Shown: in pieces, positions 33,312-57,587 of the stretch
Layout: every line of letters begins with the position of its first letter
Numbering within the stretch: the first letter of the stretch is position 1
Assembly (NCBI GenBank): GCA_949152475.1
Contig: OX424562.1
Coordinates: 36,848,657 to 36,912,656, forward strand
Length of the DNA: 64,000 nucleotides
Source of the DNA: Terebella lapidaria
Lineage: Eukaryota > Annelida > Polychaeta > Terebellida > Terebellidae
Reading direction: 5' to 3'
Notes under the pieces: generated by a model
What the model saw: the letters and a program-made list of their open reading frames with translations, nothing else
The model's database searches: none
What the model was told of the DNA's origin: nothing
Made by a program: the position numbers and the translations under genes

Positions 33312-33450
33312 GAAGGGCCACCTATGGAAGGCCCACTGCTCAATGTCCAGAAAGGCCACCTATGGAAGGCCTACTGCTCAATGTCCAGAAAGGCCACCTA
33401 TGGAAGGCCTACTGCTCCATTTCGAGAAAGGCCACCTTTGGAAGGCCTAC
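33312..33450. repeat. 38-bp tandem repeat in the 3' end of the FLYWCH form
   Basis: There are about four copies of aaaggccacctatggaaggcctactgctcaatgtccag, with variants cccactg and catttcg. The array touches the stop codon of the last FLYWCH exon. It produces overlapping plus-strand open frames that I regard as artefacts. Confidence 0.8.
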
Positions 33451-33545
33451 TGCTCCATGTAGACCAGCACCATATCTTGGTTCGGGATTTGATACTGATG
33501 AACCACCTGGTTACCATGGCTACCATCAGTCACAGCAACCACCGT
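33447..33545 (-). CDS. FLYWCH module, exon F10 (terminal)
   Basis: It opens after tgcttttaacag in phase 0 and encodes 32 residues (TVVAVTDGSHGNQVVHQYQI then PNQDMVLVYMEQ) followed by TAG. It matches the phase-0 donor of F9. No domain is recognisable. Confidence 0.65.
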   Translation of the reverse strand, partial: TVVAVTDGSHGNQVVHQYQIPNQDMVLVYMEQ

Positions 33546-33747
33546 CTGTTAAAAGCAATGAAAGTTAACTGAATAAATTTCAACGTGCCCATCAAAAATA
33601 TTTGATTTGGCAGAATTCAACTATTACAGTAAACATCGATATGGAAAATCATTCACACCCTTCCATATTCAGAAAATTAAGAATACTGCTTCGCTGTATC
33701 ATTTTCAGTGATTATTACAATACTGTACCACAACTGACATAACTTAC

Positions 33748-33909
33748 TTCGTACTGATGGTCGAGGGGTACAGACTCGATGGGTATGGCCGTCTGTACGT
33801 CTGTGTGTGTGTCCGTGTGTATGGGGAGTGCCTCCTCGACCTGGGAGGTCTGAGCCACCTCAAACGACACAGCAGACATCTGCGGCTCTTCCTCAACCGT
33901 CACACTGCT
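33748..33909 (-). CDS. FLYWCH module, exon F9
   Basis: 54 codons, phase 0 at both ends, acceptor gtgtttccag and donor GAA|GTAAGT. The product is acidic with a Thr/Asp-rich run (HTDTHTDVQT) and no recognised domain. Confidence 0.7.
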
Positions 33910-34420
33910 CTGGAAACACAATAATTTTGATATACTGTAAACGTATAAAATTTCGCGTGTATCAATGTTCCTGTTTTCAACATCTCAACATGTTCGTGTG
34001 GATTTAAGTTTGTGACTGTTGTGAATGGGCAGCCCCCCAATGGAATAACCGTGTATTCGCGCACATATTTATTTTCGCGTTTTTTTTTCAAACGCGAAAT
34101 TCACAAAATTAATACATCATGAAATTTCATACGTTTACAGTAGTTAGTCTCTGGGTTTGCTCGGGTATGCTGTGTAAATAAGTTTATATTTGCTTAATTT
34201 CTACATTTAATTGCTTCATTTCAGAGGAATACTCAGTAAGTCTGGTATTATGGTACATGTATATTGGTATATTTACTGTATATCATTGATATTTATTATA
34301 TTTCCATCTGTTACTCTAAATCAGAGTGCCTTTTAATACTATACTGGAAATTAAACCTATCACTGCAGGTGTAGCTAGACACAATTTTTTTTTTGCTGTG
34401 TTTCAGAGAGACAAAGGTGA

Positions 34421-35019
34421 CTATACTCTGATTTTTCTAACTCGTTTACACAGTTTTTTGCCTTTGTTTCAGTCAAATTACCTCAAGCGAACTATTCAAC
34501 TGAATATTACATGTCTATGATGCAAACGGCAATAGATTTTCACAAACCTGGCTTCCGAAACGCTACAAGTTTCTTTCAAAACACAAAAGTTCGATTTAAG
34601 CGAGGATTTTTACTGCTGTAGGGCGCTGCCATATTGCCTTACTCATTACGTAATTCAAGTGGACAAGTCCAAGTTAAGTACTATGGGGGCGTGCGCTGTA
34701 TTATTATGTACCAATTACATGCTGGAACCGTCCCATTCCTAACCCGCGCTCCCTGTGTGAATCATCCAAATAGACTGTTCCGTCACGCGCTCAAAATAAA
34801 CAATGTCTGTTGACATGCAGACGAAAAGTTTTCAGGAGGAATTTATCATTGCAGTAGATTACTAACTTTATCAGTTTCATGGGTAGAAGACTGAAAGTTT
34901 GCAGAAAATTGCCGTTTGGTCCCAAGGTGAGCTATGCCAAGTTACAACACGATACGATTTAGCATCGCAAAAATATCAGCAAAAAACGGTGTAAACGAGT
35001 TAGAAAAATCAGAGTATAG
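34421..35019. mobile_element. TIR element in intron F8-F9
   Basis: Terminal inverted repeats of about 30 bases (ctatactctgatttttctaa ... and its inverse). The outermost bases allow a TA target duplication, as in Tc1/mariner relatives. No coding frame. A second copy, inverted relative to this one, lies at 43686-44579. Confidence 0.65.
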
Positions 35020-35040
35020 GACTACAAGCTAGACACTGAC

Positions 35041-35226
35041 CATCATAGTGAAGTCAGGATCAGAGGTCATCAGTTTTTTCCGGAGCCGTTTGGCCTTGTT
35101 CTTGAGCTTTGTCTTCTCGAGCTTGGCCAGTTTTACTGCCTCGGGATCGGCATCGTTAACCTGGATCATGTTGTTCAGGACGTCGTCTAGCACCACATTG
35201 CTGTTGTCTTCAACAAGATTACGAAC
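35041..35226 (-). CDS. FLYWCH module, exon F8 (basic helix)
   Basis: 62 codons, phase 0 at both ends, acceptor ttgacttccag and donor ATG|GTCAGT. It encodes an acidic start, then a strongly helical basic part (KLAKLEKTKLKNKAKRLRKK) that could be a coiled coil or nucleic-acid contact and also a nuclear localisation signal. Confidence 0.7.
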
Positions 35227-35423
35227 CTGGAAGTCAAGTACGCAAGTGGAACAACTCAAGTGTCTGTCAATCCTCATATTATTCAATAGCAATAAGTTTT
35301 AAATCCTATCCAATATCAAGTTGTTTACTGACAATGGTCCAAATCTGGATACGTGACATTACTCTAGATAGCATGGTCTGTGTCTCTGTGAAACCCTTCA
35401 CCCATCCTGTGGATGTGCGTTAC

Positions 35424-35582
35424 CTGTGCTCCGGCCTTGACCTTGCGAGCCTCGTCCGGGTCGGGTGGATGGATGTGTCTGACACAGCCCCGCTTGAACT
35501 TGTTGCCGATCTGTGTGCAGCTCGCCAAGCAGTTGATCCGACCACATCTCATGCTACACCACCAGTGGATCTTGTCCCCGCG
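35424..35582 (-). CDS. FLYWCH module, exon F7 (second half of FLYWCH 2)
   Basis: 53 codons, phase 0 at both ends, acceptor gtagcgacag and donor CAG|GTAACG. It holds the metal ligands of the second FLYWCH finger: cysteines in IHWWCSMRCGRINC and the H-x-H in RHIHPPDP. The HPPDP end is typical of the family. There are extra cysteines compared with FLYWCH 1, so the exact ligand pair is uncertain. Confidence 0.8.
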
Positions 35583-35785
35583 CTGTCGCTACAAACACAT
35601 TGCACATTCAATACTATGTACATTATACACTTCATCAGACTAAAGGCGAGATCCTAGCACTAGCCAAAGGACAATTTTTTCACTATGGAAAACAATATGA
35701 GTAACTGGTGAGAACTGTTCCAGGAATCATGCACTTTTTACAATCCCGTGACAATGTGGGCTACTATCCACAAAGTGTATCTGAC

Positions 35786-35873
35786 CTTGAAGTTGTAGCT
35801 GTAGCCAATGTTATCGACCAGTTTGTCTTTGCCTCGGACCGTTCCACCCTTGACAATCTCATACTTGACAGGT
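35786..35873 (-). CDS. FLYWCH module, exon F6 (first half of FLYWCH 2)
   Basis: 88 bases, entering in phase 2 after attttgcag and leaving in phase 0 at AAG|GTCAGA. The product is PVKYEIVKGGTVRGKDKLVD then NIGYSYNFK, i.e. the strand region before the first cysteine. The intron sits at the same place as in FLYWCH 1. Confidence 0.75.
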
Positions 35874-36002
35874 CTGCAAAATTGAGGGCACTGAGTCATG
35901 CAAAAATCAGTACAGCCTATAAAACTGAATGAGATTTTTATAGAGATTCTAAAGAAATTTCAACATGGGTTAGATTTATACAAGTTACACTGGTTTCCAG
36001 AC

Positions 36003-36172
36003 CTTCCAGCCACATCCTGTCTATGCTCCTCCCCTGTGTCGCCCTCTCCGCCCACACTTCCACCAGCAACCAGCTCGTCCACCGCAGTCGATGACTCCTC
36101 AGGGTCCAGCAGCTCTCCGTCCTCCTCCGTCACCCGGTGACGCTCCTTTGTTAACCTTGGCAACAGCTCACC
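36003..36172 (-). CDS. FLYWCH module, exon F5 (acidic linker)
   Basis: 170 bases, entering in phase 0 and leaving in phase 2 at AAG|GTCTGG. It encodes a linker rich in Glu, Asp and Gly (GELLPRLTKERHRVTEEDGE, then VDELVAGGSVGGEGD). It joins the two FLYWCH fingers together with F4. Confidence 0.7.
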
Positions 36173-36554
36173 CTGGGGGACGGGTGAGGGATAGACAAGA
36201 GTTCAAGTGTTTAGCATGCTCACAGTATCCATGGTAACTGTTATATCACAGGAAAACATCACATTTGACACCTGCCGCATCTCTTCTCTCATTCCCTCGT
36301 CGTGTTATTAGTCACTCTCATGTTTATTTCTTCGTTTTTGTTTTCTTTTTGCAAATCTTTTACAGTACAAGTAAAACAGCACAAGCTATGCGCAGTTCAT
36401 ACAATTCTAATTATCTCTGTTATTGTTTTCTACCACTTGTTTTTTATTTAAGCTGTAATTACTTTGTTAAATTAACTTCTATTCTATTCTATTTGAGATT
36501 ATAAATTGTCACTTTGTCTGGCACATGTGGTGAGATTTTTTAGCCGATACTCAC

Positions 36555-36704
36555 GTTTGACCGGCGACGGTGTCTATCACCTGCCTTGACGAGTTTGTCA
36601 CTCGGAGGCAGAGTCTTAGTGAAGTTATCCACCTGTTCTTGAATCACAGCGTTCACAATATCTGTGACTGGGATTTCTTTGTCTTGTGTGACTCTCGACA
36701 GCAC
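36555..36704 (-). CDS. FLYWCH module, exon F4
   Basis: 50 codons, phase 0 at both ends, donor AAC|GTGAGT. The predicted product is helical (VTDIVNAVIQEQVDNF) and ends in a basic cluster (RHRRRSN). No known domain. It continues from F3, whose donor is repeated in the neighbouring minisatellite. Confidence 0.7.
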
Positions 36705-36784
36705 CTGCCATTAGAACAAATGAGATCAAGTCAGTTACACTAATTTCGAAATGTATAAGGTTTTAATCACAAATTTATGCGTCA

Positions 36785-37735
36785 AGTGGATCAACAATGA
36801 TGGATATGTTGGAATCCCATGGATGGTTGTGAGAGATGTTGCCATGGTTACCTCTGAGCGGAGTTTGACAGTGATGGGAATGCTGGGGTCGGGTGGGTGG
36901 TTGTGAGGGATGTTGCCATGGTTACCTCTGAGCGAAGTTTGACAGTGATGGGAATGCTGGGGTCGGGTGGGTGGTTGTGAGGGATGTTGCCATGGTTACT
37001 TCTGAGCAGAGTTTGACAGTGATGGGAATGCTGGGGTCGGGTGGGTGGTTGTGAGGGATGTTGCCATGGTTACCTCTGAGCGGAGTTTGACAGTGATGGG
37101 AATGTTGGGGTCGGGTGGGTGGTTGTGAGAGATGTTGCCATGGTTACCTCTGAGCGGAGTTTGACAGTGATGGGAATGCTGGGGTCGGGTGGGTGGTTGT
37201 GAGGTATGTTGCCATGGTTACCTCTGAGCGAAGTTTGACAGTGATGGGAATGCTTGGGTCGGGTGGGTGGTTGTGAGGGATGTTGCCATGGTTACCTCTG
37301 AGCGAAGTTTGACAGTGATGGGAATGCTTGGGTCGGGTGGGTGGTTGTGAGGGATGTTGCCATGGTTACCCCTGAGCGGAGTTTGACAGTGATGGGAATG
37401 CTTGGGTCGGGTGGGTGGTTGTGAGGGATGTTGCCATGGTTACCTCTGAGAGAAGTTTGACAGTGATGGGAATGCTTGGGTCGGGTGGGTGGTTGTGAGG
37501 GATGTTGCCATGGTTACCTCTGAGCGGAGATTGACAGTGATGGGAATGGTGGGGTCGGGTGGGTGGTTGTGAGGGATGTTGTCATGGTTACCTCTGAGCT
37601 GAGTTTGACAGTGATGGGAATGCTGGGGTCAGGTGGGTGGTTGTGAGGGATGTTGCCATGGTTACCTCTGAGCGGAGTTTGACAGTGAGGGGAATGCTGG
37701 GGTCGGGTGGGTGGTTGTGAGGGATGTTGCCCCGG
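36785..37735. repeat. 74-bp minisatellite made of an exon end and splice donor
   Basis: There are about 12-13 copies of a 74-base unit. Read on the minus strand, each copy contains the last part of FLYWCH exon F3 (ccacccgaccccagcattcc ... ctccgctcagag) followed by its splice donor GTAACC. The copy nearest F3 is the true exon end. The others lie in the F3-F4 intron and keep both the coding-like part and the donor with few changes. The leftmost copy (36785-36840) is degenerate. Confidence 0.9.
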
Positions 37736-37833
37736 GTGATGTGGTCTCCATTTTGATGTAGGATTGCTCCGCAGATGGTGTTTCTTGGGTTTCTGATGCC
37801 ACAACGCCAGCGGTCCTTCTGTCCTTTCAGAGA
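37666..37833 (-). CDS. FLYWCH module, exon F3 (second half of FLYWCH 1)
   Basis: 56 codons, phase 0 at both ends, acceptor attttctccag and donor GAG|GTAACC. It contains WRCGIRNPRNTICGAI and the H-x-H of PHNHPPDP, the metal ligands of a FLYWCH finger, then SIPLTVKLRSE. FLYWCH fingers bind DNA or proteins in animals and occur in the variable ends of Drosophila mod(mdg4). Confidence 0.85.
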
Positions 37834-37972
37834 CTGGAGAAAATAGAATATTTGAATAAACTTGAATATTTTTTATATGAAACATTTACCTACAAAGCAA
37901 AACGTGTATGTTTAGTACTGAGTGGTGTTACATGTAGGTGAATACAACCACTAAGTAATCTTTTTATCTTAC

Positions 37973-38117
37973 CTTTTTAGTGTAAGAATATCCCGAGCTC
38001 TCAACCAGCAGATCTGTGCCCAGTTGGGATGCTCCCTCGTAGATCTCAAAGGTCGTATTGTTATCCTCAGTCACAACCCCTCGGTCAACAACCACTGGCT
38101 TGTCTTCCTCCTGTGGT
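37973..38117 (-). CDS. FLYWCH module, exon F2 (first half of FLYWCH 1)
   Basis: 145 bases, entering in phase 2 and leaving in phase 0 at AAG|GTAAGA. It encodes an acidic start (PQEEDKPVVVDRGV) and the first strands of the FLYWCH fold (GTDLLVESSGYSYTKK). The Gly-Tyr-Ser-Tyr segment is shared with FLYWCH 2. Confidence 0.75.
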
Positions 38118-38269
38118 CTGTCACAAACACACAACACACATCTCATCATACAATCGTCTCATGTCCTGAACTTCAACATAGAGGAGTTTCTGAGAATCTT
38201 TATTTATGGTAACAACGAGGTGTAGATAATACTTGCACACCACATCTTCTATAATAGGTTGACACCTAC

Positions 38270-38511
38270 TGTATGATGATGGGGGTCACGGTTTCTGTCT
38301 GGACAGGTGTACTCGTCTCCCCGCCACTCCTGGATCTAGCACTGGTGCTCCTTGTGCTCATTCTAGTCACTGACACGGGAGTGACGGGCTTCTCTCCGGG
38401 TTTCCATGACGATTTCTGTGGTGATTTCTGGGGAGTTTTACGTGGCGATTTCTGTGGCGTTTTCTGCGGTGTCAGCTCTACTCTCTCAACCCGTCCAATC
38501 CTCTTCCCAGG
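38270..38511 (-). CDS. FLYWCH module, exon F1 (basic repeat linker)
   Basis: The exon begins in phase 0 after ccactgtag and leaves in phase 2 at ACA|GTAGGT. It codes for PGKRIGRVERVELTPQ, then TPQK/SPQK/SPRK repeats of AT-hook or CDK-site flavour, then a Ser/Thr/Arg-rich stretch ending VTPII. The phase-0 entry lets it join gene B's first exon directly. Exons F1-F10 then give 522 residues. Confidence 0.65.
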
Positions 38512-39226
38512 CTACAGTGGAAGGAAAAATGTACCCCGAAATATGAAAAAGTACTATTTCAGGTCCTTTGTCACCTGTGAAATTGTTTGTCGGATGTTTT
38601 CTTCTTATCAATATGGCTACACAAAAGGAGTTAGAACTTTCAAGTTGAATGGAAATCATCAATCTGTTTCGTTCATTTGTATATGGCAAGTGGCCCCAAA
38701 ACTTTTCATCTAGACATTGTAATTCACTGTTAATATCCAAGCTGAAAATCGCTACATACAGTAAACTTATTTTCTGCTGCAGTCATGCACAAACAGTTCA
38801 CTAACAGTAATCATGGTGGTTGTGGTAATCACATTTGGATGAGAAATACAAGTATTCATGAACATGTAGGAGTACATGTACATCGTCGAAAAAAAGAACA
38901 CAGTAGAACATTCCGCTTTCGCACTGTCATGGCTGATTATTATGTACAAGATATAGATATGACAATTATATGCAAAATAAAAGCATTCATTTTCAGTACA
39001 CAGTATGTATGGTTACACTGATGAGATATGTGGAAATATATCATACTATACAGAAAACGGCATGTGAGCACAACATATGAATGTACAAAGTTTATGAGTT
39101 CTGTCCACTGTATTGCATGAGGAAAAAAATTCTTGATAGCAAAAATCAAAGGAGAATCAACTGAATTACAAATTGGAAATCAACTGAATTACAAATTGGA
39201 AAACTTTGGATGCCTCCGAAAAAATA

Positions 39227-39520
39227 TTAAGGAAACGTCATAGGCCCACGCCAGGGCAGTCCATGAGTTTGAGTCATGTGGTCGATTAGTACACCCATCC
39301 GACTGAAGGACTCGGAGCAGTGCTGACACTTGTGTGGCAGCTCTCCAGTATGTCCGAGCTGATGAGCGACCAGTCTCTGTTTGGACGTGAAACCTTTCTG
39401 GCAGGTCGAACAGGAGTATGGGTAGATCCCAGCATGCATCTTCATGTGTCGCTGGAAGTTGCCTCGGGAAGTGAAGGATTTCTCACACATGTGACAGGTC
39501 CCAGCGTCCGACAAAGGGCC
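39227..39520 (-). CDS. Gene B, C2H2 cassette B2 (three fingers)
   Basis: The exon opens after gtctcttgcag in phase 0 and encodes 97 residues then TAA. It holds three classical C2H2 fingers: CHMCEKSF..., CSTCQKGF... and CQHCSESF..., the last two joined by a TGELPHK linker, with a stop soon after (LPWRGPMTFP). It is most like cassette C1 of gene C (GHTGxxLHxCQHC), so both probably come from an ancestral arrangement. It would give gene B a 306-residue form. Confidence 0.8.
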   Translation of the reverse strand, partial: GPLSDAGTCHMCEKSFTSRGNFQRHMKMHAGIYPYSCSTCQKGFTSKQRLVAHQLGHTGELPHKCQHCSESFSRMGVLIDHMTQTHGLPWRGPMTFP

Positions 39521-39840
39521 CTGCAAGAGACACAAACAGGCCGTATTAGTAAATGAATTCCTTACTCAAGGAGGTTGACATGGTCATGTGTATGCAGGTC
39601 CATCCACGTCTACAAAGACATTGGCTGGTTGTGTCACAACTGAATTGATAAAATAACTTCAGCATCATCAATCATCACCTCAAAGCATTTTGTATACATG
39701 GACATCATGCTTGTACATGAAACATGTTCTTGGAAACTTCATCCTGTGGGCATAGGTACAAGGTAATCATAATACTGATTAACAATGTTTTCAGAATATT
39801 CCTTGTGTGTCCTTGTGAGTAATCCATATTGCCACTATTA

Positions 39841-40112
39841 GTTATCCCATGTTTGTTCACAAAATACGGATTCATATCTATGTCTAGCCTTCGGCCTCAT
39901 GGGATACGGACAGCTAGACATTGATATAATTCCGTATTTCATGAACAGACATGAGGTAACGAATTTATCACTGACTGTGAACGAGACTCACAAGGGATAC
40001 GGGAACTTGTATCGAAAGTGGCGCGTGCCAAATTAGATATTCAGGATACAGGTTTATATCACCGTTGTGATTGGCCAATCACAGTCTCGGGTTTGTGTTC
40101 AGTCAGTGATAA
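39841..40112. repeat. Double foldback repeat in gene B intron
   Basis: Two nested or adjacent inverted pairs: gttatcccatg.ttgttca...aaatacgga at 39841-39871 with its partner ending 39960, and ttatcactgactgtgaac near 39965 with its partner ending 40112. Probably a miniature transposon. Confidence 0.5.
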
Positions 40113-41057
40113 ATGTATTTACCTGTAACCTGTCCACTGGTCAGTAAAGACCCATGGAGGATATAACGTAGAACTTCACTGACCCCTTTCCAGGCACATT
40201 CAAGAGCCTTTCAAGTGACTATCTCTACCACCATGTAACCTTCAGGCCCCTGAGTTATCCAGTGACCTTCCAATGACCTATATTGACCTCAAATGACCTC
40301 CAGTGACCTTCTCCGGGCACAATAGGATCTTGGCTCTGCGTAGGAAGGTCATGTCCCACCCCACATGAATACTAGTATAATCTAAGAATCTAGCAGACAC
40401 AGACATTGAATTATGTTCCATGATTCGGAAGTATGTCCATACACATCACATGAACTGGCACAAACTGGCACGAACTGGCATGAACTGGTTTTTTTTTTTT
40501 TATTATTGTATATTGATATTTATAGTAGTGAGAAACATACCTCCCTTGTTGCCAAGAACATGAAGAAGGTTTTCCAACAGTCTATTTTTTTTATTCTGCA
40601 ATTCTGTCCAATAATCCAGATATTTTGTATGAACAATGCAAAAGACTTCTCTCAAATCTACCAGTTCAATTAATGTGGTTAATGTGGAATGTGGTCGGTA
40701 TCATTCTTTTATACTGGTGTTTCAAAGACGACAACGTCATTTAATATTTTATCATTTGACAGAATTTGACTACATACTAATGCACCATTTACTAGCTAAA
40801 TGTCAACTACTACATGCAATACAGAAAACAAACACATGTACTATGTACATGTACTATAAAAAGATGAACATGATGTCGATGATGTACCGGTATAATACCA
40901 AATTTGGAGTTTCCTGTTGCAAGTTGAATTCCTCGCCAAGTTACTAATTCAGTAAATGCAATTCCAACAAAAAGCCAAAATCTACAAAAGCAAAGTGAAG
41001 CAGTCAATCTGAACTCAAAGTCAATTGATATTCATGAAGCATTGTTCATTACAATGA

Positions 41058-41474
41058 TTACTGATACATGTATTCATTATCATCAGGACCATGTAGACGT
41101 TGGACAGCGTCAGAATGACTGATGGGGGAAGCGTCCACACTCGATTCTTTATCCACATCATCAGTCGAGTGCACATTGTAATGTCTCTGTAATGACTGTT
41201 TGAAATTAAACTCCTTGCCACAGATAACACACTTGAATTCCTTGACACCCGAGTGGTGGGACATGTGTCCTCTCAAACCCGTGCTGGACGTGAACTCCTG
41301 GCTACAGACTTCACAAGTGTATACGGTGCGTTTAATACGTTTATACTGTCCACTGTGTAATTTAACATGACCCAGGGGGTTTCTGTCTCGATTGAGCATC
41401 ACGGAAGGACGGGGACACGTGAGCCCCGTGGACGTGAGGTCATCTCCCGCCGGCGACATCATAGCAGCTACCGT
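41058..41474 (-). CDS. Gene B, C2H2 cassette B1 (two fingers)
   Basis: The exon opens after gatctgtttcag in phase 0 and encodes 138 residues then TAA. After a Ser/Pro-rich start (TVAAMMSPAGDD) and a basic run (YKRIKRTVYT) come two C2H2 fingers, CEVCSQEF... and CVICGKEF.... It ends with an acidic tail (DDVDKESSVDASP). Joined to the exon at 42572 it makes a 347-residue protein. Confidence 0.8.
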   Translation of the reverse strand, partial: TVAAMMSPAGDDLTSTGLTCPRPSVMLNRDRNPLGHVKLHSGQYKRIKRTVYTCEVCSQEFTSSTGLRGHMSHHSGVKEFKCVICGKEFNFKQSLQRHYNVHSTDDVDKESSVDASPISHSDAVQRLHGPDDNEYMYQ

Positions 41475-42571: not shown

Positions 42572-43198
42572 CTGCTGCGACACGTCTCCGAATGCTGAGG
42601 TGTTTAGTTGCTGGGCGACTGACGATCGTGCACCGGCCGTGTGGTGTACAAGCCATGCAGACGCTCGCTCCTGGTCAGTGGCCTCCTCAAGTCGGACATC
42701 GGACAGCTCCAGTGGGTTGCCATGGTGACTAGTGGAGGGTAGACTGGTGGAGTCGAAGCTTGTAAAGTCCAGCTGCTCAACCTCTTGAATGCTTTCATCC
42801 CAGTCGTCTGCTTCGTCTTTCACAACAACAACTTCATCGTCATTTTCATTCTGTCGATGTTGCGTTTGTGATGCACTGACGGATAATTTTGATGTTGACT
42901 TTTTATCACCAGCAGACTGACTTCTGTCCGAGTCTGCTGTAGAAGTTCTCCGTCTCTTACGAGTTCGTCGTGGAGAGACACCCGTTTCTTTGCTGGAACC
43001 ACTTTCCACCGAGTCGTCATTTGCAGATTTGATGATCTCATCAAAGTTCAACAGAAACACATTCTTATCATCCAATGTTATTCCAATGAGTGCTTCTATG
43101 CGGAATTTTGCATCAAACTCCAGACCATTTTTGCACAGAAGAGTTAGAGTGTCTTTCAAAAGAACTTTCACACGCTCCTGATCCGGTTTCAGCAACAT
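42572..43198 (-). CDS. Gene B, first coding exon: shared N-terminal domain
   Basis: 209 codons, encoding the N-terminus of a probable nuclear regulator. Residues 1-57 are the shared domain (KPDQERVKVLLKDTLTLLCK, then IEALIGITLDDKNVFLLNFD). Residues 77-84 are basic (RRTRKRRR). Residues 123-133 are the VVVVKDEADDW motif with the psi-K-x-E consensus. The exon ends FGDVSQQ at donor CAG|GTACAT in phase 0. The start ATG is 15 bases inside the exon, which opens after the acceptor ccaaatttcag, so a non-coding 5' exon is expected as in genes A and C. Downstream choices in phase are B1, B2 and the FLYWCH module. Gene A is the closest paralog in the first 25 residues. Confidence 0.87.
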
Positions 43199-43685
43199 GA
43201 TGGCAACTGGTTCTGAAATTTGGAAATCTATTTTTCAATAATAAAACATAGTAACAAATAATCACTGGGCCAGTACGAGCCATCCGTCCTAAATTCACCA
43301 CATCCCAAAATTCGCTAACACTGTTCCAGGGCAATTTAGTGTATTACCATGACACAAGACATGAATCCTCCATGTGGGAGGAAAAAAATTGGCTATGTTT
43401 CCAGAGTTATGCTGGTACAAAGACTGGATATCAGCTGATCAGTATCTCGACTGATGATCAGTACCGGGTATGAGGCCTGAATCACTGGTGTTGACGAACG
43501 ATGACTTTAGCATGAATGGGTTCAATGGTTCATAGTCTGGCAAATATTTCGGACTATTTAGAGTATTGAACAGTGTTATAGGTTAGTTGGGCAGGTGGGT
43601 CTAATGATATTCTAATATATAGATGCATATGCCTATGGTCAGTTCAGTACCCACACTACATGCACTACTAGAACTATTGCATGTA

Positions 43686-44579
43686 CTATACTCTGATTTT
43701 TCTAACTCGTTAACACTGTTTTTTGCCGATATTTTTGCGATGTTTAATGGTATCGTATTGTAACTTGGCATACTTCACCTGGAGATCAAACGGCATTTTT
43801 CTGCAACTTTCAGACTTCTGCTCATAGAACTGTGAGAGTTAGCAATCTACTGCAATGATAAATTTTCCCTGAAATCCTGTCGGTTGCATGTCAACAAATA
43901 TTGTTTTCCTTTGGCACGTGATGGGTGATTCTGTTCCGATAATTTGCATAGGGGCGAGAATTAGGATTCCGGACCGTCCACGCAGGTAAACTGATTCGAA
44001 ATTACTCGCACGTGCAGGCACCTTGACGACAACTGACAACCCGATCCCCCTATTATGACTAATTTGAACTTGTCCATTTGGATTCAATCATCACCTGTCG
44101 AGAACCAAGCAATATGTCGGCGCCCATGGTTCGAGACATCCTCGATTAAAGGGCCACTGTATGGGATTCGGCTTTTGGGGGATTTCCAAGATTTTTCTCC
44201 CGACGCTTCTATTTATAGAACAAAAGGTCAGATTACGTTTTTGACCCAGAATCTCTGCCGAGCAAATTGTCAGATCAGCCCAGGTCGGCTAGGCAGAGAT
44301 CCTAGGCCAAAAACGTCATCTGACGTTTTGTTCTATAAATAGAAGCGTCGGGAGAAAAATCTTGGAAATCTTCTAAAAGCCAATCCCATACAGTGGCCCT
44401 TTAAATAAAACTTTTGTGTTTTGAAAGAAACAGATAGCGTTTCGGAAGGCAGGTTTGTGTAAATTAATTGCCGTTTGTATCACAGATATGCAATATTCAG
44501 TTGAATAGTTCGCTCGAAGTAACTTGACTGAACTGAAGGCAAAAAACAGTGTAAACGAGTTAAAAAAATTAGAGTATAG
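43686..44579. mobile_element. TIR element, second copy, carrying a nested element
   Basis: It shares terminal inverted repeats (ctatactctgatttttctaa) and internal sequence with 34421-35019 in the opposite orientation. A 251-bp hairpin element has inserted into it at 44150-44400. Confidence 0.65.
44150..44400. mobile_element. TTAA-flanked hairpin miniature transposon
   Basis: The inverted arms of about 105 bases (agggccactgtatgggattc ... ) are nearly identical, and TTAA lies directly on both sides (44146-44149, 44401-44404). TTAA duplication is the hallmark of piggyBac-type insertion. No coding frame. It is nested inside the element at 43686-44579, so it is younger. Confidence 0.75.
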
Positions 44580-45091
44580 TAGCAGACTTGCTGTGTGCAG
44601 ACACCACAGCGCAACCGGTTCTTAGCTTCCAGATTTTTACTGATTTTAGTGGAACAGATTTTATTGGATTTTACGGACTGCATCTTACACTGTGAACAGT
44701 GGTGCTCCCAGCAGGGAGGTATTTAACAACAACAACAACAACAATATGGTTTCATGCGGTGAACAAAAATAGAGTCGGACCACATCACATTTTCTATTAA
44801 TTTGGAGCTAAATGTCACCGAATTTCAAAGAATTCGGGTCTAACATTCACTTTGTGTTTACGATGTTCCGTGATTTTACCCAGTTGGTGTCAATATTCCA
44901 GACAAACACGTTTTAATTCATCTGTTTTCTTTCAAAACAAATCGAATGCATCAACCGAATTCTACTTTTTGTATGGAATGCTAGATTGGCACACGCGATA
45001 AAAACTCCAAATTAACACCAAGGGTCCTGTAGCTTACCGTATAGAATGTTCCCAGTCTCTGCATCTCATAAATGTCCCACTACAAAAAAAT

Positions 45092-48615: not shown

Positions 48616-48643
48616 CCCTCAGCAGTTCTGGAATTGCCAAAAT

Positions 48644-49363
48644 TCATCCAAAACACTGTAAAGTCTCCACTTCTGTCTCTATGACTGTGGTTTCCAAGTC
48701 GAGGATGCCCTGTTCGAAGTCTGGTAGGGCACCAAGTCCTGAGGCGCTGGGCTCAGTCACCCGTGGATCAGTGGGAGTGACTTTTTCATCCCCTTTTGGT
48801 ACCGGTTCACTGCTTCCAGTGACTCGTGTAAAGGTTGCTTCACTCACATCTGAAGGAGCAGTTTGGGCAAACACTTGTTTTTCACCAGTGTCAATAACTT
48901 CAGTAAACTTAGCTTCACTTTCATCTTCACTGGAATTACTTGAATCACTGGAACTTTCATCCTCGTCCGTGCTCTCTGCTTCTTCTTTGCAAGCCACCCT
49001 GGCACCAGCAAGATTGTCTGCCTGCTTGCGACCTTTAGCAAACTTGCAGCTCCCATCCATGTGCTGCTGGTAACCTTTCTTCGTCGTGAATTTCTTGCCG
49101 CAGTTTTCGCAGGTGACTTGCCCCTTGCCGTGAGCCATGTCCAGGTGGCAGCGGAAATCGTGCATCTCCACGAACTTGTTGTTACAGAGTGGACAGATCA
49201 TATAGCTCTTCTCGTGGTGGCGCTTGTAGTGCCTGATGATGCTCGCTCTGTAGGGAGTCGTGTAGTCACATCCCTCAAACTTACACGTCCTAACCTTCTG
49301 CTTGCTCCGCTGTCGGGCCATCTCCCGCGCGTTCTGGAACTTCTGCTCGATATCGTGCTTCAT
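48644..49363 (-). CDS. Gene C, C2H2 cassette D4 (three fingers, acidic tail)
   Basis: The exon opens after cttcgtgttctag in phase 0, its first codon being ATG, and encodes 239 residues then a stop. A basic helix (KFQNAREMARQRSKQKVRT) leads into a C-x4-C finger with the YRASIIRH core, then CPLCNNKF... and a third finger ending in Cys (CENCGKKF...DGSC). A long acidic Ser/Glu tail (EDESSSDSSNSSEDESE) follows, which could act as an activation region. It is a tandem duplicate of D1-D3. With the gene C first exon it gives 501 residues. Confidence 0.82.
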   Translation of the reverse strand: MKHDIEQKFQNAREMARQRSKQKVRTCKFEGCDYTTPYRASIIRHYKRHHEKSYMICPLCNNKFVEMHDFRCHLDMAHGKGQVTCENCGKKFTTKKGYQQHMDGSCKFAKGRKQADNLAGARVACKEEAESTDEDESSSDSSNSSEDESEAKFTEVIDTGEKQVFAQTAPSDVSEATFTRVTGSSEPVPKGDEKVTPTDPRVTEPSASGLGALPDFEQGILDLETTVIETEVETLQCFG

Positions 49364-49487
49364 CTAGAACACGAAGAGGATTTGCAGTGACCTTCAAGTA
49401 ACATTTACCAGGAAACTGGAGAAACGCAACATCTGAACAACATGTATCATTCATAGGATGGATCGCTAGTGAGCACAACACAACTAC

Positions 49488-49802
49488 TTAATACACAAAA
49501 ACATGATAACACGTGCACAACGCATAGACATGGATGCTACTGTACATATCACAGTGAGGCAACAACTGTCCACGAACCAGAATAACGGCTTCGGAATCCT
49601 CAAGTTTGTCGTGCTCCTTGTTGATGTGGTTGCGGAGGTTACAGAGCCGGTCATAGCCACGACCGCACAGCTGACAGACGAACTCGTGGTCGTCCTTACG
49701 GTGCTGGCGCATGTGCTGGCCGAGCCCGGCCCGAGACATGTACGTTTTCCCGCACTGGTGACAGTAATAGATGGTGTTCTCATGCACCTGCTGCACGTGA
49801 CC
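49488..49802 (-). CDS. Gene C, cassette D3, second exon
   Basis: The exon opens after ttcggttgccag in phase 0. Its first residues GHVQQVH supply the two histidines of the finger begun in exon 50088-50375. Two more fingers follow (CHQCGKTY..., CQLCGRGY...). The frame continues 38 residues past the last finger to TAA. A weak donor (CTG|GTTCGT) after SEAVIL could instead pass in phase to D4. Confidence 0.78.
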   Translation of the reverse strand, partial: GHVQQVHENTIYYCHQCGKTYMSRAGLGQHMRQHRKDDHEFVCQLCGRGYDRLCNLRNHINKEHDKLEDSEAVILVRGQLLPHCDMYSSIHVYALCTCYHVFVY

Positions 49803-50087: not shown

Positions 50088-50375
50088 TTGGAGCTCGGAC
50101 TGGTCAACAAAACGCTTGCCGCAGGTTTGGCAGAGTGTGAAGTTGTTGGCATGGCGACGCTGGTGCCTGGACATGGTTGAGCGGTAGGGAGTGGAGTAGG
50201 TGCAATCATCAACGCAACACGTTCGTATGGCAATATTCCTCTTCTCATCCCAGACGACTTTGACCTTGTTCTCCTCGGCGTAGGATCGCGGAGTGCGCTC
50301 CGTCATGAACTGCGACAGTACGTCAGCGATCACTTCCTTCGTCTGTGGCATCAGACTGTTCAGGTCAGCAACACC
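50088..50375 (-). CDS. Gene C, cassette D3, first exon
   Basis: 96 codons, phase 0 at both ends, acceptor ttggtctgttgcag and donor CAA|GTTAGT. A helical start (MPQTKEVIADVLSQFM) precedes a C-x4-C finger (CCVDDCTYSTPYRSTMSRH) and the first half of a second finger (CQTCGKRFVDQSELQ). The finger is completed by the next exon, which supports this splice junction. Confidence 0.8.
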
Positions 50376-51028
50376 CTGCAACAGACCAAGGGGAAAGGCA
50401 TGGATTATTCATTCAAGACTTTGACTTACCGATACATGACAGACAACTGAAACACGTTCTACTTTAATGGCATTTTCTTGAATTATCCCGCTCTTTTCTT
50501 TTTTCTTACAGTACTGCCCAATGCTAGCATTGCTTCTTGGCACACTAACGCATATGACATCCACATTTTTTGTTCTGGTGAAGACGATTATAAGCTTGCA
50601 TGCATTTGAAAGCACATTGGCGAGTGGTTTATACACTTCAAACAACTTGCTAAGGAGCAAAATGATACATTTCAGTGTTTTGTTTAGGATTGAGATCTTT
50701 CAGATAAATCATTTTGAGTTGAACTATTGTCATGGATGAATTGGTTATATTCTATAACATCAAATAGGGCTACACTGTTTACTCATTTGTTATGTTATGT
50801 TTGACTCAGACAGCCGCCTCATGTCGTGCGAGTTGATGCTGGCCTCATATCGCCAGTACTTACACTGGCTAGCACTTAATATATATAGCCCTCCCATCAC
50901 TAGTGAAGATTTGCGAAATCGGTTCTGTTTATCTGGTGTTTTAAAGCGAGACTTTGATTCCATCAGAAAGCAACATATCAAGTCAGTTTCCAGCTTTTTT
51001 TTACCAAGTTTATGCTAGCTTTCAAATA

Positions 51029-51212
51029 CAGTGGTCCCCTCAGATAAGACCCCCTCAATCATGTCAATAGAGACTTCCCACTCTGTGGAGACTTTTTCTT
51101 GTGGCCCTAGGATGACTTTGACATGTAAATGAACCCTTCTAATAAGGGACCCCCTTAGATAAGACCTCAATTCTTTGGCAGAAGGGTAGATCTTATCAGA
51201 AGGGGACCACTG
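51029..51212. mobile_element. Mariner-like miniature element
   Basis: The ends CAGTGGTCCCCTCAGATAAG and its inverse are flanked on both sides by TA, the Tc1/mariner target duplication. 184 bp, no coding capacity. It sits in the intron between D2 and D3. Confidence 0.75.
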
Positions 51213-51686
51213 TATATAAATTGAATCACCATATTCATATGACAAATCACCATTATGGCAATGTTCACTCAGTAAATGTCATCTTATTAACCGACAGTTT
51301 ATTTGAAGAATATTGTTCAAGGTTCCCAGAACAGATTGATAGAAGTACTTCCTGTAGCATGTGTAGACTTTCTGCAGGAACAGAACCGTTGATAGCAGAT
51401 CAACAAGTCACAGTCCTTCTATGTTCTTTAATGTTCCAAGGTAACTCCTAATGCTTCTTTCAACTGACTGTTTGTCTTGACAGTTTGCAATTTAGCACAT
51501 ATTTGTTCTGAGTCATGTCTAAAATTAAATACACATTCAAAATACAAAAATCCCAACTTAAAGAAACCTTGTAAGTTGCAGATAAAGCAAAAGAAGGATA
51601 TGCAACAATGCTGAACAGAATCAATTTTACAGTAATAAGAAGAGTTCAACTTCAACTCGAAGGGCACACAGTTCAACTCGAAATAT

Positions 51687-51692
51687 GAATTT
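51687..51692 (-). terminator. Poly(A) signal, cassette D2
   Basis: AATAAA on the minus strand 25 bases after the D2 stop, supporting D2 as a last exon. Confidence 0.65.
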
Positions 51693-51717
51693 ATTACTGT
51701 CTACTTCAGCAAACATG

Positions 51718-52050
51718 CTATGTTAAAGTGTGTTCAGACAATGTGGAGTCCACGCCAGTACATTTTTTCAGATGAACGATGACACTACTCTTGTGTCTGA
51801 AAGTTTTAGGACACTGCGGGCAGCCGAAGCGGATGTTTTCGTGGGCAGATTTGACGTGCTTGTCCATGTTGTACTTTTCGACGAACGCTTTGTCACAGTA
51901 GTCGCACTTGATGAACTGTTTGGTGTGCTTGGTCCTGACATGGCGTAGCATGCTGGACCGGTACACCGCGGAAAAGTCACAGCCATCGTGAGAACACTTG
52001 CGCTCGGGTGGTACTGTGGCCTTTCTAACCGCCTCCAACTTGTAAGTCAC
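51718..52050 (-). CDS. Gene C, C2H2 cassette D2 (three fingers)
   Basis: The exon opens after ctctttgacacag in phase 0 and encodes 110 residues then TAG. A short basic lead (VTYKLEAVRKATVPPERK) runs into a C-x4-C finger with the AVYRSSMLRH core, then CDYCDKAF... and a C2HC-type third finger (CPQCPKTF...LKKC). It could be joined to gene C's first exon (372 residues) or to D1 (518 residues). Confidence 0.82.
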   Translation of the reverse strand: MTYKLEAVRKATVPPERKCSHDGCDFSAVYRSSMLRHVRTKHTKQFIKCDYCDKAFVEKYNMDKHVKSAHENIRFGCPQCPKTFRHKSSVIVHLKKCTGVDSTLSEHTLT

Positions 52051-52299
52051 CTGTGTCAAAGAGTGAAACAAACTTGAAGCATCATGAACTAGTGAACAAC
52101 CATTTACATTCATCACTATTTGGTAATGACTCTACCATGTTACGCAGTAAACTTTACTATTGTACAGTTAAACATAAACAGGATACAGCGACACGTTTTT
52201 ATATATTATAGTTGCACTGTATTTTGGTAAATGATGGGCAGTACGTAATGCAGCAGTTACCATGGTTACTTCTGAACAACTACATGATTGAAAACTCAA

Positions 52300-52305
52300 T
52301 TTATT
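52300..52305 (-). terminator. Poly(A) signal overlapping the end of cassette D1
   Basis: AATAAA on the minus strand lies only a few bases beyond the D1 splice donor and just before the read-through stop at 52296-52298. Confidence 0.5.
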
Positions 52306-52313
52306 TGACTTAC

Positions 52314-52751
52314 CAAGGAATTATCAACTCCGTGAATCTCTTCCATGTGCGTCTTCAAGATATCCAAGTCATCGAAATACTGGAAGCACGTTTGACACTC
52401 GAAGTGAATGCTCCTCTCGGGAGACTTCGATGCCTGGTGTCGCTTCTCGTGGGACGACAGACCGGACCTGCTGGCCAGAACTTTGCCGCACTCTTGGCAC
52501 ACAAACTTGTTGTTCTCATGCTGCGAGCTGATGTGCACCTTCATGTCATACTTCTCCCTAAAGCGGCGATCGCACTGCGGACACTTGAAGAACACATTCC
52601 TGTGGCGACGCATATGTCTCATCATTCCCGAGCGGTAACGAGCCTCGAACCCGCAGCCCTCCACTTTGCAAGCGATGACTTTTGACTGGTTTCCAGATGG
52701 TTGTTTCCTCCGAGATTTTTCCGTGATGACTTTCGGTCCATCCGATCCCAT
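52314..52751 (-). CDS. Gene C, C2H2 cassette D1 (four fingers)
   Basis: 146 codons opening with ATG right after the acceptor cctcttgtgtcag, phase 0. A basic lead (KSRRKQPSGNQSK) is followed by a C-x4-C finger with the ARYRSGMMRH core and three more fingers (CPQCDRRF..., CQECGKVL..., CQTCFQYF...). The exon ends VDNSL at a consensus donor TTG|GTAAGT. Reading through that donor adds VSQIN and a stop at 52296. So D1 can end the protein or pass in phase to D2. Confidence 0.82.
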
Positions 52752-54081
52752 CTGACACAAGAGGAAGGGAGACATCAGCAATGACCAGTGTGGCTAGAGG
52801 CTCTCCTACAAACATGTCATCTTATTGAACTCGCGTTGTCAGAGTTAACGATATAAATAGTCATTTCTGATCGATTCACTCAGAGTCAAAGTATCCAATG
52901 TGTGCCTTGTGGGAGCAAACAGTAATATCCAAAAAAAAAAAATCAAGATGAAGCTAATATGGTTGTCCTTTTCTAAGTATGTGCTTTAAATATTTAACAA
53001 CAAATTTGTAATCAATGTCACAAGAAGAATACATGAATTGTGATATCACACGAATGAAAATGAACAAGGAGTCATTTCTTGGTATGATTTTCATCAAATT
53101 TTATTCCTATCGTCCTGGCAGTTGGACGTTTATACGCAGTGGAATGTATTCTATCTGAACCTGTACTCAGGAGCGACAATTTTTGCATTCAACAACACAT
53201 TCAATTTGACATACATTTAGAAAACATCTTATCAGAGAAGTCAATCTTATTAAACAGCAGAAACACCTACAAATACTGATCATTTGCTCTGAGTCAGAGA
53301 CCTGTATATGGTGAGGCTACTGTAATCAGGTAATTGTATTTTCAAACAGATTATATGTAGCATATAAAAAAAATTTCGGTGGAAAAAAGAAACACAATTT
53401 CCTTCATTACCTCGAGTGAGCAGATACAGTACATGGATGCATGTCATTATTAGGTATTTCTCATAGAAAATACATTCAAGGGGGAGAAAATTTCCATCTT
53501 TCCTGAAGAAAACATTCATTCAAAGTACTCTCGGGACTTCCATTCTAGGGTAGATATGATTGAAAGTTTTTGTTAAACCAGCAAGAAACTTTCTGGTCAA
53601 GCAGCGAGTTCTCTTAACATACCCCTGAAAAAGTCCAAATATAATATCTGATTTGCTTTATAGAGCACCACTTCTGAGATCAAGGAGATATGGCCGAAAA
53701 TTACAAATGTTGACTCAGCAAAAACTTCGGGGCAGAGACACAAGTTAATTTGAAGTACCTAGTGACGAGATGAGGTGAGACGGTTTCGAAAATAACATCT
53801 GTCTCAATGATGCACCATATATCTGAGATATGGCCAAAAAACACCCTCTCTGACTCCATATAAATTGTGTAAAGTTTCAAAGTTTAGACTATTACATAAC
53901 GACTAACGAGACATAGGACCTGCCCTGCCTATTTCACAAAGAATCTAAATCTGATTTGGCCGACTAAGTTCGGCATTTAGCATGGGAGATAGTAGGCTAA
54001 ATCCTATTCTAGTCAGCTAAGGTTGATTCAGATTCCTCGTATATGGTACTAGTAGGTTTCCGGTACATAAGATGTGCGGTA

Positions 54082-55371
54082 CAGTGATTGCCAAAGACGT
54101 CGGACCACGACCCAAGTCCGGTAAAAAGAGGGCTGGTCCGGAAAAAAATACCAGCTTGTCTGCCCAACGGTCCGATGGGTTTTGCCCCATGAATAACGAT
54201 CTAACAATTTGATCGCAATCGTCAAATTACCCATGTGCTTCTCGAATTGAGAGCCATCAGAGACACACAACCCTCACAACCCCCCCCCCCACATCCACCT
54301 GCGTCTCCGCCCCACCCCCCCCCCCCCCCCCCCACCATCCTTCCCAGGGCTAACACTGCCTTTGATCATGTTGATTGCTGGTAGAATCTCACGTTCCTGA
54401 TTGTTTGGAGAAGGGTGGCACGTCCGGCAAATTTTATGCACCCGGGCCCATTACTCGGCTGCTCATTGGCTAATCGTGTCTGCAACAACGGCTTGTGCTG
54501 ATGAATAATTAATGAGATGGCATGACGGGATTGAAATCTCCACCAGAAAACTTCGCAAGCCAGTACAAAACTGTGAACTTTAACAACTGGGCACCTGCTT
54601 GGATCAGATACAGCAGTACTTAATAAGAATTCATTTGATCAAACAAACCACACACTCTCCCCATTGAATCCACCTCTGGTGGATCTCCCTGAAAGGTAAC
54701 CAAAGTTATTTGTCCGACAGGTGAAGTGCCTTGCTGGTCAGGGCAGGTTTGTCTGTCAGCTCCCTCTCCCCCCTTACATAATCAAGCATTAAAGAGCGGC
54801 TGCACCAGATATGCACTGGAAAAAGCAACAAAATTGGCTTTTGATCGTCCACTTTCTGTGGTGATTACATAGATACTTACCCAGACACACCCAGTAAAAC
54901 TGGTATAAGCAACCAATGTAACAGAAAATCACGGCAAATCAGTCAGGAGAAGTGAATGGCAAAGTTTGCTTGCCAGATGGAGCAAAAGTGAGAACAAATA
55001 GTTAAGTTATGCGCTGAACTAAGAGTGCCACAATGAATAAGATGATTAGATAAGATTAGATTTCAAGAAATATCCACCCCCTATTCTATTATTAAATTTG
55101 CTGTCCAATGTCCAATCCATACTAATATCATTTTTATTCTACCGTGTACTATTATTTGGAAGATGACAGTAGATGAAATCATTATCCTAATATGTCTTGA
55201 CCCATTTAAGCCTATTTCATGGCTCAGGATACTCATCAACGCTGAATTTTTAGGGTATTGAATGTTAGTGATAAAAAAGCTGGACCAGTGAAAGTTAGGC
55301 TGGGCAGGTAAAAAATTTGGGTTCACCTGCCCAACGGTCCAGTAAAATTCTGACCACTTTGGCAATCACTG
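54082..55371. mobile_element. Non-autonomous hAT-type element
   Basis: The ends CAGTGATTGCCAAAG and CTTTGGCAATCACTG form a 15-base inverted pair. The bases directly outside are identical 8-mers, gtgcggta (54074-54081 and 55372-55379), the 8-bp target duplication of hAT transposons. No transposase frame is seen. Two poly-C tracts lie inside (54280-54334). It separates cassettes C1 and D1. Confidence 0.85.
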
Positions 55372-55514
55372 GTGCGGTAACTGAGTGGAAAAAACATTCC
55401 TACAAAACCATCAGGACAAAAGAATACAAAAATTGGTACAAACTCAAGTTAAAATCAGAAAATTGTCTCAAAATATGCATTCTACAAAGAGATCAGTGAT
55501 GAATATGAGGACTG

Positions 55515-55787
55515 TCACATTTTGTCTTTGTGCATGAAGACCATGTGTTCTCTCAAGGACTTCTTGTGGCTATATTTCTTGACACAGTGCTGACATTGGT
55601 GAAGTTTCTGGCCTGTGTGACCAGACATATGTCCTTCATAATCCTTTTTCGCAGCAAATCCCTTCCTACAATAAATGCAGTTATATTTGAAGCCTATCCT
55701 GTGCATTTCCTCATGCCGTTGGTGACTCGCTGAGTCGTGGAATGTTCTTGGACAAACGGAACACGACAGGACATTCGCAAACATCAT
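55515..55787 (-). CDS. Gene C, C2H2 cassette C1 (three fingers)
   Basis: The exon opens after tttcttttgcag in phase 0, its first two codons being ATG, and encodes 90 residues then TGA. It is almost nothing but three C2H2 fingers: CSVCPRTF..., CIYCRKGF... and CQHCVKKY..., with a TGQKLHQ linker. It ends MHKDKM right after the last histidine. It is the first cassette behind gene C's first exon and the counterpart of B2 in gene B. The joined protein would be 352 residues. Confidence 0.83.
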   Translation of the reverse strand: MMFANVLSCSVCPRTFHDSASHQRHEEMHRIGFKYNCIYCRKGFAAKKDYEGHMSGHTGQKLHQCQHCVKKYSHKKSLREHMVFMHKDKM

Positions 55788-56007
55788 CTGCAAAAGAAAG
55801 AAAAACTTTGTGTTAGTCTGGAAAGCATGCTCAGTGCTCAAATATTCAAATGACCTTGTAGATCTGGGTACTGCAGAAAACGTTGAAAAGACAAGTTTAG
55901 TATATTCTAGAACAGAACAATTTGTTTTCAATGGGACTCTGGTCTTAACGAGGACTGCAATGGAAGTACATGTAAACACGGAAGAAACAAACAAGTCGAA
56001 CACGTAA

Positions 56008-56086
56008 TGTGGGTCACATTTGGGTCACAATGTGACCCAAAATTGTGACCCAAAACACATTATGTGGGTCACATTTTGGGTCACAT
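56008..56086. repeat. Interleaved gtgggtcaca repeats
   Basis: Four to five direct and inverted copies of gtgggtcacattttgggtca lie in gene C intron 1. Can fold on itself. Confidence 0.7.
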
Positions 56087-56801
56087 CTTGAAGAAGTTAC
56101 AGGGTACAGTTGGTGTAAATACCAAAGCTACACTACAAAGAAATAGATATAATGCCTAACTGAAAATTTAATGCTCATGAATTGCATGCTTGTGATTGAC
56201 TGGGGTTTTAGTTCTCAAAGGAACATGAAGAATCGACAGATAATTTCTGATTGAGATCGTGTACATTTTGAGAAACCTCTGATATTCAGTATTACCTGTT
56301 GAGTGAAAACAAACAACACGAAACTTGAGAGCTTTGTAATTTTAACCTGGGCAGTTTGCATATTACTCTACAGACATGTGAATTTCAAAACCTCCAATAC
56401 CCCCCGGTAGATACTAATATATCGGTCACAACCATGTTAGCAATGTGATTTGAATTGTGTGTGAGAAAGTATGATGAGTGTCATTCTTAAAACAGAAATC
56501 ATTCAAGTGATTCTATGTGGGCAATTATATGTAAATATGTTAGCAATGTTAGTGTGATTACGATTGCATGATTCAGTTAGCAATGATCCATTTATAACAA
56601 TACACTTGGACAGGATTCAGGCGATGATTTCTGAACAATGTAAAGCATGTGTATGTGTGCTACTATTCCTGATATTATCCACAGAGATCCATGATTTCTG
56701 ACAGTAGATAGTATCCCTTTATAACCCACCCCAGCCACCTCCCCCACCCCTACCCCCACCTCCCACCCCACCCCACTCACAAACCATGGAAGCTGACCCA
56801 C

Positions 56802-57587
56802 CTGTTGCTGGTTGAGTTGTTGACTGTCTCCCTGGGACACTGACATGCCGCTCATCTGTAGCTGTTCTTGGATATCGCCGGCTGTTACCAGGGAGACCGC
56901 ATCAGGCAGGGACATGTTGGACGAGTAGGCAGCTCCCTCTGGAGCTCCCAGCATAGGATCAGACATGTCGGGTGTCACTTTATGTGGCTGTACGGCGCTG
57001 GTCGACGGCGCTCCGTCCCAGCTGTCAACAGCCTCCTGTTTGATGAACAGAATTTCTTCTGTCTGCGAGGTGTTCTGGTTTGTGCCTTTGGGCTGCTCAT
57101 CACCATGGTCATCATCCTGCTTGGTGTCATCCAGCTGACTGTCATCACCATGGTAACTAACAAGGTCTGCACCATTGTCGTCATTGTTGCTGTCGGAAGT
57201 CGGATCTTGGGAGTTGTCCTTCGGTGTGTTACTGTTGTTGACAGCTGGCCTACGTTTCGAAGAGGTCACTCCTGTTGAGAGCCTGGGGCTGACATCCAGT
57301 CGACGTTTCGGGCCTCGCCGCCTCTTCCTGCCGGGGCCGGGATCAGAGTCCCCACCGGAAGAGTCACTGTCACCATGGCCACCAAACAGACCAGGTTTAT
57401 GACTGGAGTGCTTCACCAACTCATTGATGGACACCAACACCACTTGGTCCTCATCAAGAGTCACCCCAATCAGAGCCTCCAGGGACAACGAGTTGCTGAA
57501 CTCCAGCCCATTCTTGCAAAGCAGCGTGATTGTGTCCTTCAACAAAGTCTTCAGCTTTGTGACACGGTCGTGTTCTCGGAGCACCAT
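56802..57587 (-). CDS. Gene C, first coding exon: shared N-terminal domain
   Basis: 262 codons, the longest of the three paralogous first exons. Residues 9-60 are the shared domain (KLKTLLKDTITLLCKNGLEF, then LEALIGVTLDEDQVVLVSIN). Residues 85-97 are very basic (PGRKRRRGPKRR). A long Asp/Asn/Gln-rich middle follows. Residues 179-191 hold ILFIKQEAVDSWD with the psi-K-x-E consensus. The exon ends QQLNQQQ at CAG|GTGGGT, phase 0, the same donor as in gene A. The frame is open upstream, but the acceptor atttttaacag lies 4 bases before the ATG at 57587, so that ATG is chosen. Cassettes C1 and D1-D4 lie in phase behind it. Confidence 0.87.

What the first reader, a model, noticed from the sequence alone, without database searches (positions are those of the whole stretch)
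33447..57587. A lola/mod(mdg4)-like locus with a non-BTB shared N-terminus and alternative zinc-finger ends
Behind the first coding exons of genes B and C lie at least six units: B1, B2, C1, D1/D2, D3 and D4. Each opens with a phase-0 acceptor, and each unit ends in its own stop. The donors of all three paralogous first exons are phase 0. In insects, lola and mod(mdg4) use one shared BTB N-terminus with alternative C2H2 or FLYWCH ends, the latter partly by trans-splicing. Here the same logic seems to exist with another N-terminal domain. Splice choice is inferred.
Basis: partly seen in the sequence, partly recalled or inferred. Interest (0 to 1): 0.92.

Follow-up and report, generated by a model that had tools for sequence, protein, structure and literature searches.

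The report
Swappable-end zinc-finger genes without BTB
This animal DNA carries three related genes that each begin with the same small protein domain and are followed by zinc-finger endings that look ready to be spliced on in turn, an arrangement known from the fly genes lola and mod(mdg4) but built here on a different starting domain.

Summary
Three paralogous first coding exons lie on the minus strand (A 19889-19176, B 43198-42572, C 57587-56802), each ending in a phase-0 GT donor. Behind them are nine zinc-finger acceptors, all phase 0: one after A, three after B, five after C. One B unit has ten exons and two FLYWCH fingers; with exon B it makes one 733-residue frame, GT-AG at all ten introns. 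The first exon is not BTB. Its 60-residue helix-hairpin domain has no Pfam match above cutoff and no clear PDB match. Of 144 relatives in hand, 141 fit the domain motif; 17 of those also carry C2H2 fingers. Of 20 relatives with another end, five have a partner 83-93% alike that reads into a phase-0 GT where the first goes on into fingers. So the exon is joined to finger cassettes in other animals. That one gene chooses among several cassettes is inferred: no RNA evidence, and no single-species pair of different ends. Probably a lola/mod(mdg4)-like design on another N-terminal domain: a new variant of a known kind.

The parts
56802..57587 (-). Shared first coding exon of gene C, 262 codons: N-domain, basic cluster, FIKQE motif, donor CAG|GTGGGT phase 0
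55515..55787 (-). Unit C1: phase-0 acceptor, 90 codons, three C2H2 fingers, stop
   Evidence: 75 bits with the 3-finger profile of relatives
52314..52751 (-). Unit D1: phase-0 acceptor, C2H2 fingers, donor TTG|GTAAGT phase 0
51718..52050 (-). Unit D2: phase-0 acceptor, three fingers that align with those of D1, stop; no Met before first finger
50088..50375 (-). Unit D3a: phase-0 acceptor, first fingers, donor CAA|GTTAGT phase 0 (read from the sequence, not scored)
49488..49802 (-). Unit D3b: phase-0 acceptor, further fingers, stop at 49488 (a weak-looking GTTCGT about 29 codons before the stop could be a donor towards D4)
48644..49363 (-). Unit D4: phase-0 acceptor, three fingers, acidic Ser/Glu-rich tail, stop, AATAAA 29 bases on
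42572..43198 (-). Shared first coding exon of gene B, 209 codons; donor CAG|GTACAT phase 0 (weak)
41058..41474 (-). Unit B1a: phase-0 acceptor, C2H2 fingers, stop
39227..39520 (-). Unit B1b: phase-0 acceptor, three C2H2 fingers with HAGIYPYSC linker, stop; first Met lies between the first two cysteines
   Evidence: (77 bits)
33447..38511 (-). Unit B2: ten exons (38511-38270, 38117-37973, 37833-37666, 36704-36555, 36172-36003, 35873-35786, 35588-35424, 35226-35041, 33909-33748, 33545-33447), two FLYWCH fingers
   Evidence: PF04500, 2.7e-10, 2 stretches
19176..19889 (-). Shared first coding exon of gene A, 238 codons; donor CAG|GTGGGT phase 0
16273..16751 (-). Unit A1: exons 16751-16626 and 16443-16273, one zinc finger by eye, stop

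Best explanation
Three tandem paralogous transcription-factor genes of a probably spiralian animal share one plan. A single coding exon gives the protein a small helix-hairpin domain (probably a protein-protein or multimerisation module), a basic cluster and a psi-K-x-E motif. Its phase-0 donor is spliced, one at a time, to alternative downstream cassettes, each with a phase-0 acceptor and most with their own stop. The cassette sets the DNA-binding or recruitment part: three-finger C2H2 ends, duplicated D-type C2H2 ends, or a FLYWCH end. Shown: coding exons, phases, separate stops, homologous N-domain, and joined forms in relatives. Inferred: choice between cassettes in one gene, cis-splicing, and the N-domain's role.
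For: Exons, donors, acceptors and phases. tblastn finds the three N-domain copies and, besides them, only 14-15-residue matches at E 0.45 or worse; a scan for ATG exons with a phase-0 donor showed A, C, D1 itself and one inside B2 (its pattern missed exon B). B1b, D2 and A1 lack a usable Met ahead of the fingers. Of 144 relatives in hand 141 fit the motif, 17 of these also carry C2H2 fingers, 13 with three. Of 20 relatives with another end taken for comparison, five have a partner 83-93% alike over 231-361 aligned columns that reads V then S, C or stop: P0036/P0038, P0048/P0108, P0047/P0135, P0052/P0086, P0054/P0111; the alignments part there or run up to four residues past it. B1b and C1 score 77 and 75 bits with a profile of 13 relatives' finger ends. 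P0046 is a C-type relative elsewhere, again with Q then V at the exon end.
Against: No RNA data. No pair of different ends on one shared exon in one species was found. Most joined relatives come from unnamed assemblies; the six Paralvinella entries carry only 'hypothetical protein' names. No relative in hand joins the N-domain to FLYWCH (no PF04500 in the precomputed Pfam columns; only one search's length limits would admit a 733-residue protein) or to a D-type finger (pattern scan). The finger profile is not specific: D and B1a units score 38-68, held-out relatives 21-48, and A1 only 10 bits. Exon B's donor is weak (2.2; 143 of 3809 GT sites reach 2). C1, D1 and D4 open with ATG. A single shared exon is not universal: P0003, P0068 and P0079 read V-S near residue 76-82 where P0001 goes on, which suggests an intron inside the shared part there.
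Confidence: 0.65

Rival explanations
1. Ordinary tandem genes: each shared exon is spliced to only one cassette (for example C to C1, B to B1a), and the other units are independent genes with their own noncoding leader exons or unrecognised first exons.
For: C1, D1 and D4 start with ATG right after the acceptor; B2b has an in-frame ATG at 38149 without needing a splice; the 17 finger-bearing relatives each show one finger end.
Against: B1b, D2 and A1 have no Met ahead of the fingers; the scan for other ATG exons with a phase-0 donor found none between the units apart from D1 itself (its pattern was strict enough to miss exon B); B1b and C1 score best with a profile of the finger ends joined to this N-domain elsewhere.
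Confidence: 0.25
2. Linear multi-cassette transcripts: D1-D2 and D3-D4 are consecutive exons of a single long finger protein, so gene C has one or two ends, not five.
For: Phase-0 donor at D1 (TTG|GTAAGT, 5.1) and one at D3a; D1 and D3 have more fingers than D2 and D4, as if a two-part unit was duplicated.
Against: C1, B1a and B1b end in stops, so gene B needs a choice if all its units are used; between D3b and D4 there is a stop and only a weak-looking donor.
Confidence: 0.07
3. Units are partly dead or captured copies, not used in any mRNA.
For: No expression data; transposon-like inverted repeats nearby.
Against: Open frames with intact fingers and GT-AG splice sites over up to eleven exons.
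Confidence: 0.03

Closest known systems
Drosophila lola
   Same: One shared N-terminus and several alternative ends; 17 of 20 isoforms have different C2H2 fingers (PMC11426971, passages)
   Different: Shared part is a TTK-type BTB in lola; here another domain. lola isoforms involve trans-splicing (same passages); here only cis order is seen and no RNA
Drosophila mod(mdg4)
   Same: Shared N-terminus with alternative ends; FLYWCH among the ends. Cis-spliced homologues exist in beetle, bee, ant and Daphnia (PMC4667647, passages)
   Different: BTB N-terminus from four common exons (PMC5666082, passages), about 30 isoforms mostly FLYWCH, some ends on the opposite strand (PMC4667647, PMC11426971, passages). 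Here one common coding exon, one FLYWCH unit with two fingers, C2H2 units otherwise, all on one strand
CST complex STN1 C-terminal domain (PF09170, STN1_2)
   Same: 11 of 18 N-domain members match at E 0.1 or better, best 4e-4; where coordinates were printed, always at about profile positions 53-114
   Different: Below the curated cutoff wherever the score was printed (13.5-16.5 against 27.2 bits); no PDB match by N-domain profile

Membership tests
lola / mod(mdg4) | BTB (TTK-type) domain in the shared N-terminus | tested here: not met
   No BTB match for any of the three shared exons in Pfam; only subthreshold MAJIN (B) and STN1_2 (A, C)
lola / mod(mdg4) | Several alternative terminal units behind one shared donor | tested here: inconclusive
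   Units and phases present; use of more than one per gene needs RNA
lola / mod(mdg4) | C2H2 or FLYWCH ends | tested here: met
   C2H2 units and PF04500 FLYWCH twice
lola / mod(mdg4) | Trans-splicing | not testable with these tools
   All units lie on the minus strand downstream of the shared exons
STN1 C-terminal domain | Match above Pfam gathering score | tested here: not met
   13.5-16.5 bits against 27.2 where the score was printed; the best member's bits were not printed

The most novel reading that the evidence does not exclude
Spiralians carry their own, independently evolved lola/mod(mdg4)-type system: a widespread helix-hairpin domain absent from Pfam serves as the common N-terminus, and tandem paralogous genes share a phase-0 code that would let any first exon join any cassette, C2H2 or FLYWCH, including across neighbouring genes.
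Probability: 0.3. Interest if true: 0.82.

Novelty: new variant of a known kind. Interest (0 to 1): 0.64.

Why it matters
The TTK-type BTB domain of lola and mod(mdg4) was reported only from arthropods (PMC11426971, passages). The same gene design on an unrelated N-terminal domain in another branch of animals would mean that one-head, many-tails transcription-factor loci arose more than once, and would give a second system for asking why such loci use in-phase cassettes and whether the common domain must multimerise. It also points to a conserved domain with no Pfam match above cutoff.

Full report
What is there. The window is animal DNA by its gene content. On the minus strand three paralogous single coding exons were found: A 19889-19176, B 43198-42572, C 57587-56802. 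Each starts at an ATG 4 to 14 bases behind a likely acceptor and ends CAG|GT in phase 0. tblastn with the three N-terminal stretches finds these three copies; the rest are 14-15-residue matches at E 0.45 or worse. With a donor matrix recalled from general knowledge, A and C score 5.7 and B 2.2; of 3809 minus-strand GT sites 36 score 4 or more and 143 score 2 or more.

Units behind the exons. Nine acceptors open a unit in phase 0: A1 at 16751, B1a 41474, B1b 39520, B2 38511, C1 55787, D1 52751, D2 52050, D3a 50375, D4 49363. B1a, B1b, B2, C1, D2, D3b, D4 and A1b end in stop codons of their own. D1 and D3a carry phase-0 donors, so D1-D2 and D3a-D3b are probably two-exon ends. Shared exon B plus the ten B2 exons is an unbroken 733-residue frame, GT-AG at all ten introns, with two FLYWCH stretches (PF04500, E 2.7e-10). 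Of 17 C2H2 pattern matches of the window 16 lie in these units; the remaining one is in the intron after exon B; the reversed sequence has none.

Is the pattern more than chance? The fingers make the units coding sequence. Phase 0 alone is weak, since 10 of 12 introns inside the units as modelled are phase 0 as well. The stronger points are the separate stops, the lack of a Met ahead of the fingers in B1b, D2 and A1, and that a scan for other ATG exons with a phase-0 donor found none between the units except D1 itself, though its pattern missed exon B. The first fingers of D1 to D4 align with one another, so cassettes seem to have multiplied in place.

Relatives. Searches with the shared exon (18 proteins), with its first 62 residues (24 proteins) and with an alignment (120 listed of 765) gave 144 different proteins in hand; 141 fit the core motif and 17 of those also carry at least one C2H2 finger, 13 of them three. 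The only names with an organism are six entries of Paralvinella palmiformis (P0001, P0022, P0030, P0053, P0054, P0056), an annelid within Spiralia. The window's host is therefore probably a spiralian, but it was not identified. I compared 20 relatives with another end (the 17 with fingers plus P0001, P0031, P0142). Five have a partner 83-93% alike that reads V followed by S, C or a stop, as a phase-0 GT donor would, where the first goes on into fingers; the alignments part there or run up to four residues past it. The other 15 have no such partner in hand. Thus the exon end and its joining to cassettes recur in other animals. B1b and C1 score 77 and 75 bits with a profile from 13 relatives' finger ends; five of those 13 have exactly an H-x-G-I-[YF] linker, as B1b has, others variants of it. 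The profile is not specific: D and B1a units score 38-68, four relatives left out of it 21-48, A1 10. Other ends on this N-domain: a zf-Tnp_2 finger in a Paralvinella entry (P0001) and ends without Pfam match (P0031, P0142). In P0003, P0068 and P0079 the frame turns into V-S near residue 76-82 where P0001 continues, so the shared part may be split by an intron in that group.

The N-domain. AlphaFold2 on gene A's first 72 residues with 38 sequences gives helix 5-25 and a hairpin 31-42/46-57, mean pLDDT 85.7. No PDB match stands out by fold or profile. Pfam shows STN1_2 below its cutoff, in 11 of 18 members at E 0.1 or better, best 4e-4. By loose patterns without a control, 111 of 131 members of 200 residues or more have a psi-K-x-E motif behind the domain and 74 of 131 a basic cluster; A, B and C have both. 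That this domain multimerises is a guess by analogy with BTB.

How it most likely works. The shared exon is spliced to one cassette at a time, giving proteins with one head and different DNA-binding or recruiting tails. Joining is supported by relatives; choice within one gene is inference.

Against it. No RNA; no two ends on one exon in one species; no FLYWCH end (precomputed Pfam columns, of which only admits so long a protein) or D-type end joined to the N-domain among the 144 proteins; ATG straight after three acceptors.

Comparison. In lola and mod(mdg4) the common part is a TTK-type BTB, reported as not found outside arthropods (PMC11426971, passages); mod(mdg4) has trans-splicing and mostly FLYWCH ends in flies, and cis-spliced homologues in other insects and Daphnia (PMC4667647, passages; PMC5666082, passages). 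By the BTB criterion this is not a member; it appears to work like one.

Noticed in passing
36820-37731: Tandem array of 12.3 copies of a 74-base unit (95% matches) that begins in the FLYWCH exon B2c and repeats its end; the exact exon-end-plus-GTAACC word occurs five times, so several possible donors lie in a row.
   Followed up: partly
34420-35022 and 43683-44580: Two inverted copies of a transposon-like element, each with inverted repeats of about 41-44 bases near its ends.
   Followed up: no
63-1250 (+): ORF with DUF3504 (2.7e-25) and phage-integrase (5.2e-7) matches, a Crypton-like recombinase by recollection.
   Followed up: partly
38149 (-): ATG in frame with exon B2b inside the preceding intron; a possible independent start of the FLYWCH unit.
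   Followed up: no
P0041, P0043, P0044: Relatives with two N-domains in tandem in one protein.
   Followed up: no
P0001 against P0003, P0068, P0079: V-S read-through near residue 76-82 suggests an intron inside the shared N-terminal part in this group.
   Followed up: no
5580 (+): Phase-0 coding-like stretch of 78 codons on the plus strand, outside this locus.
   Followed up: no
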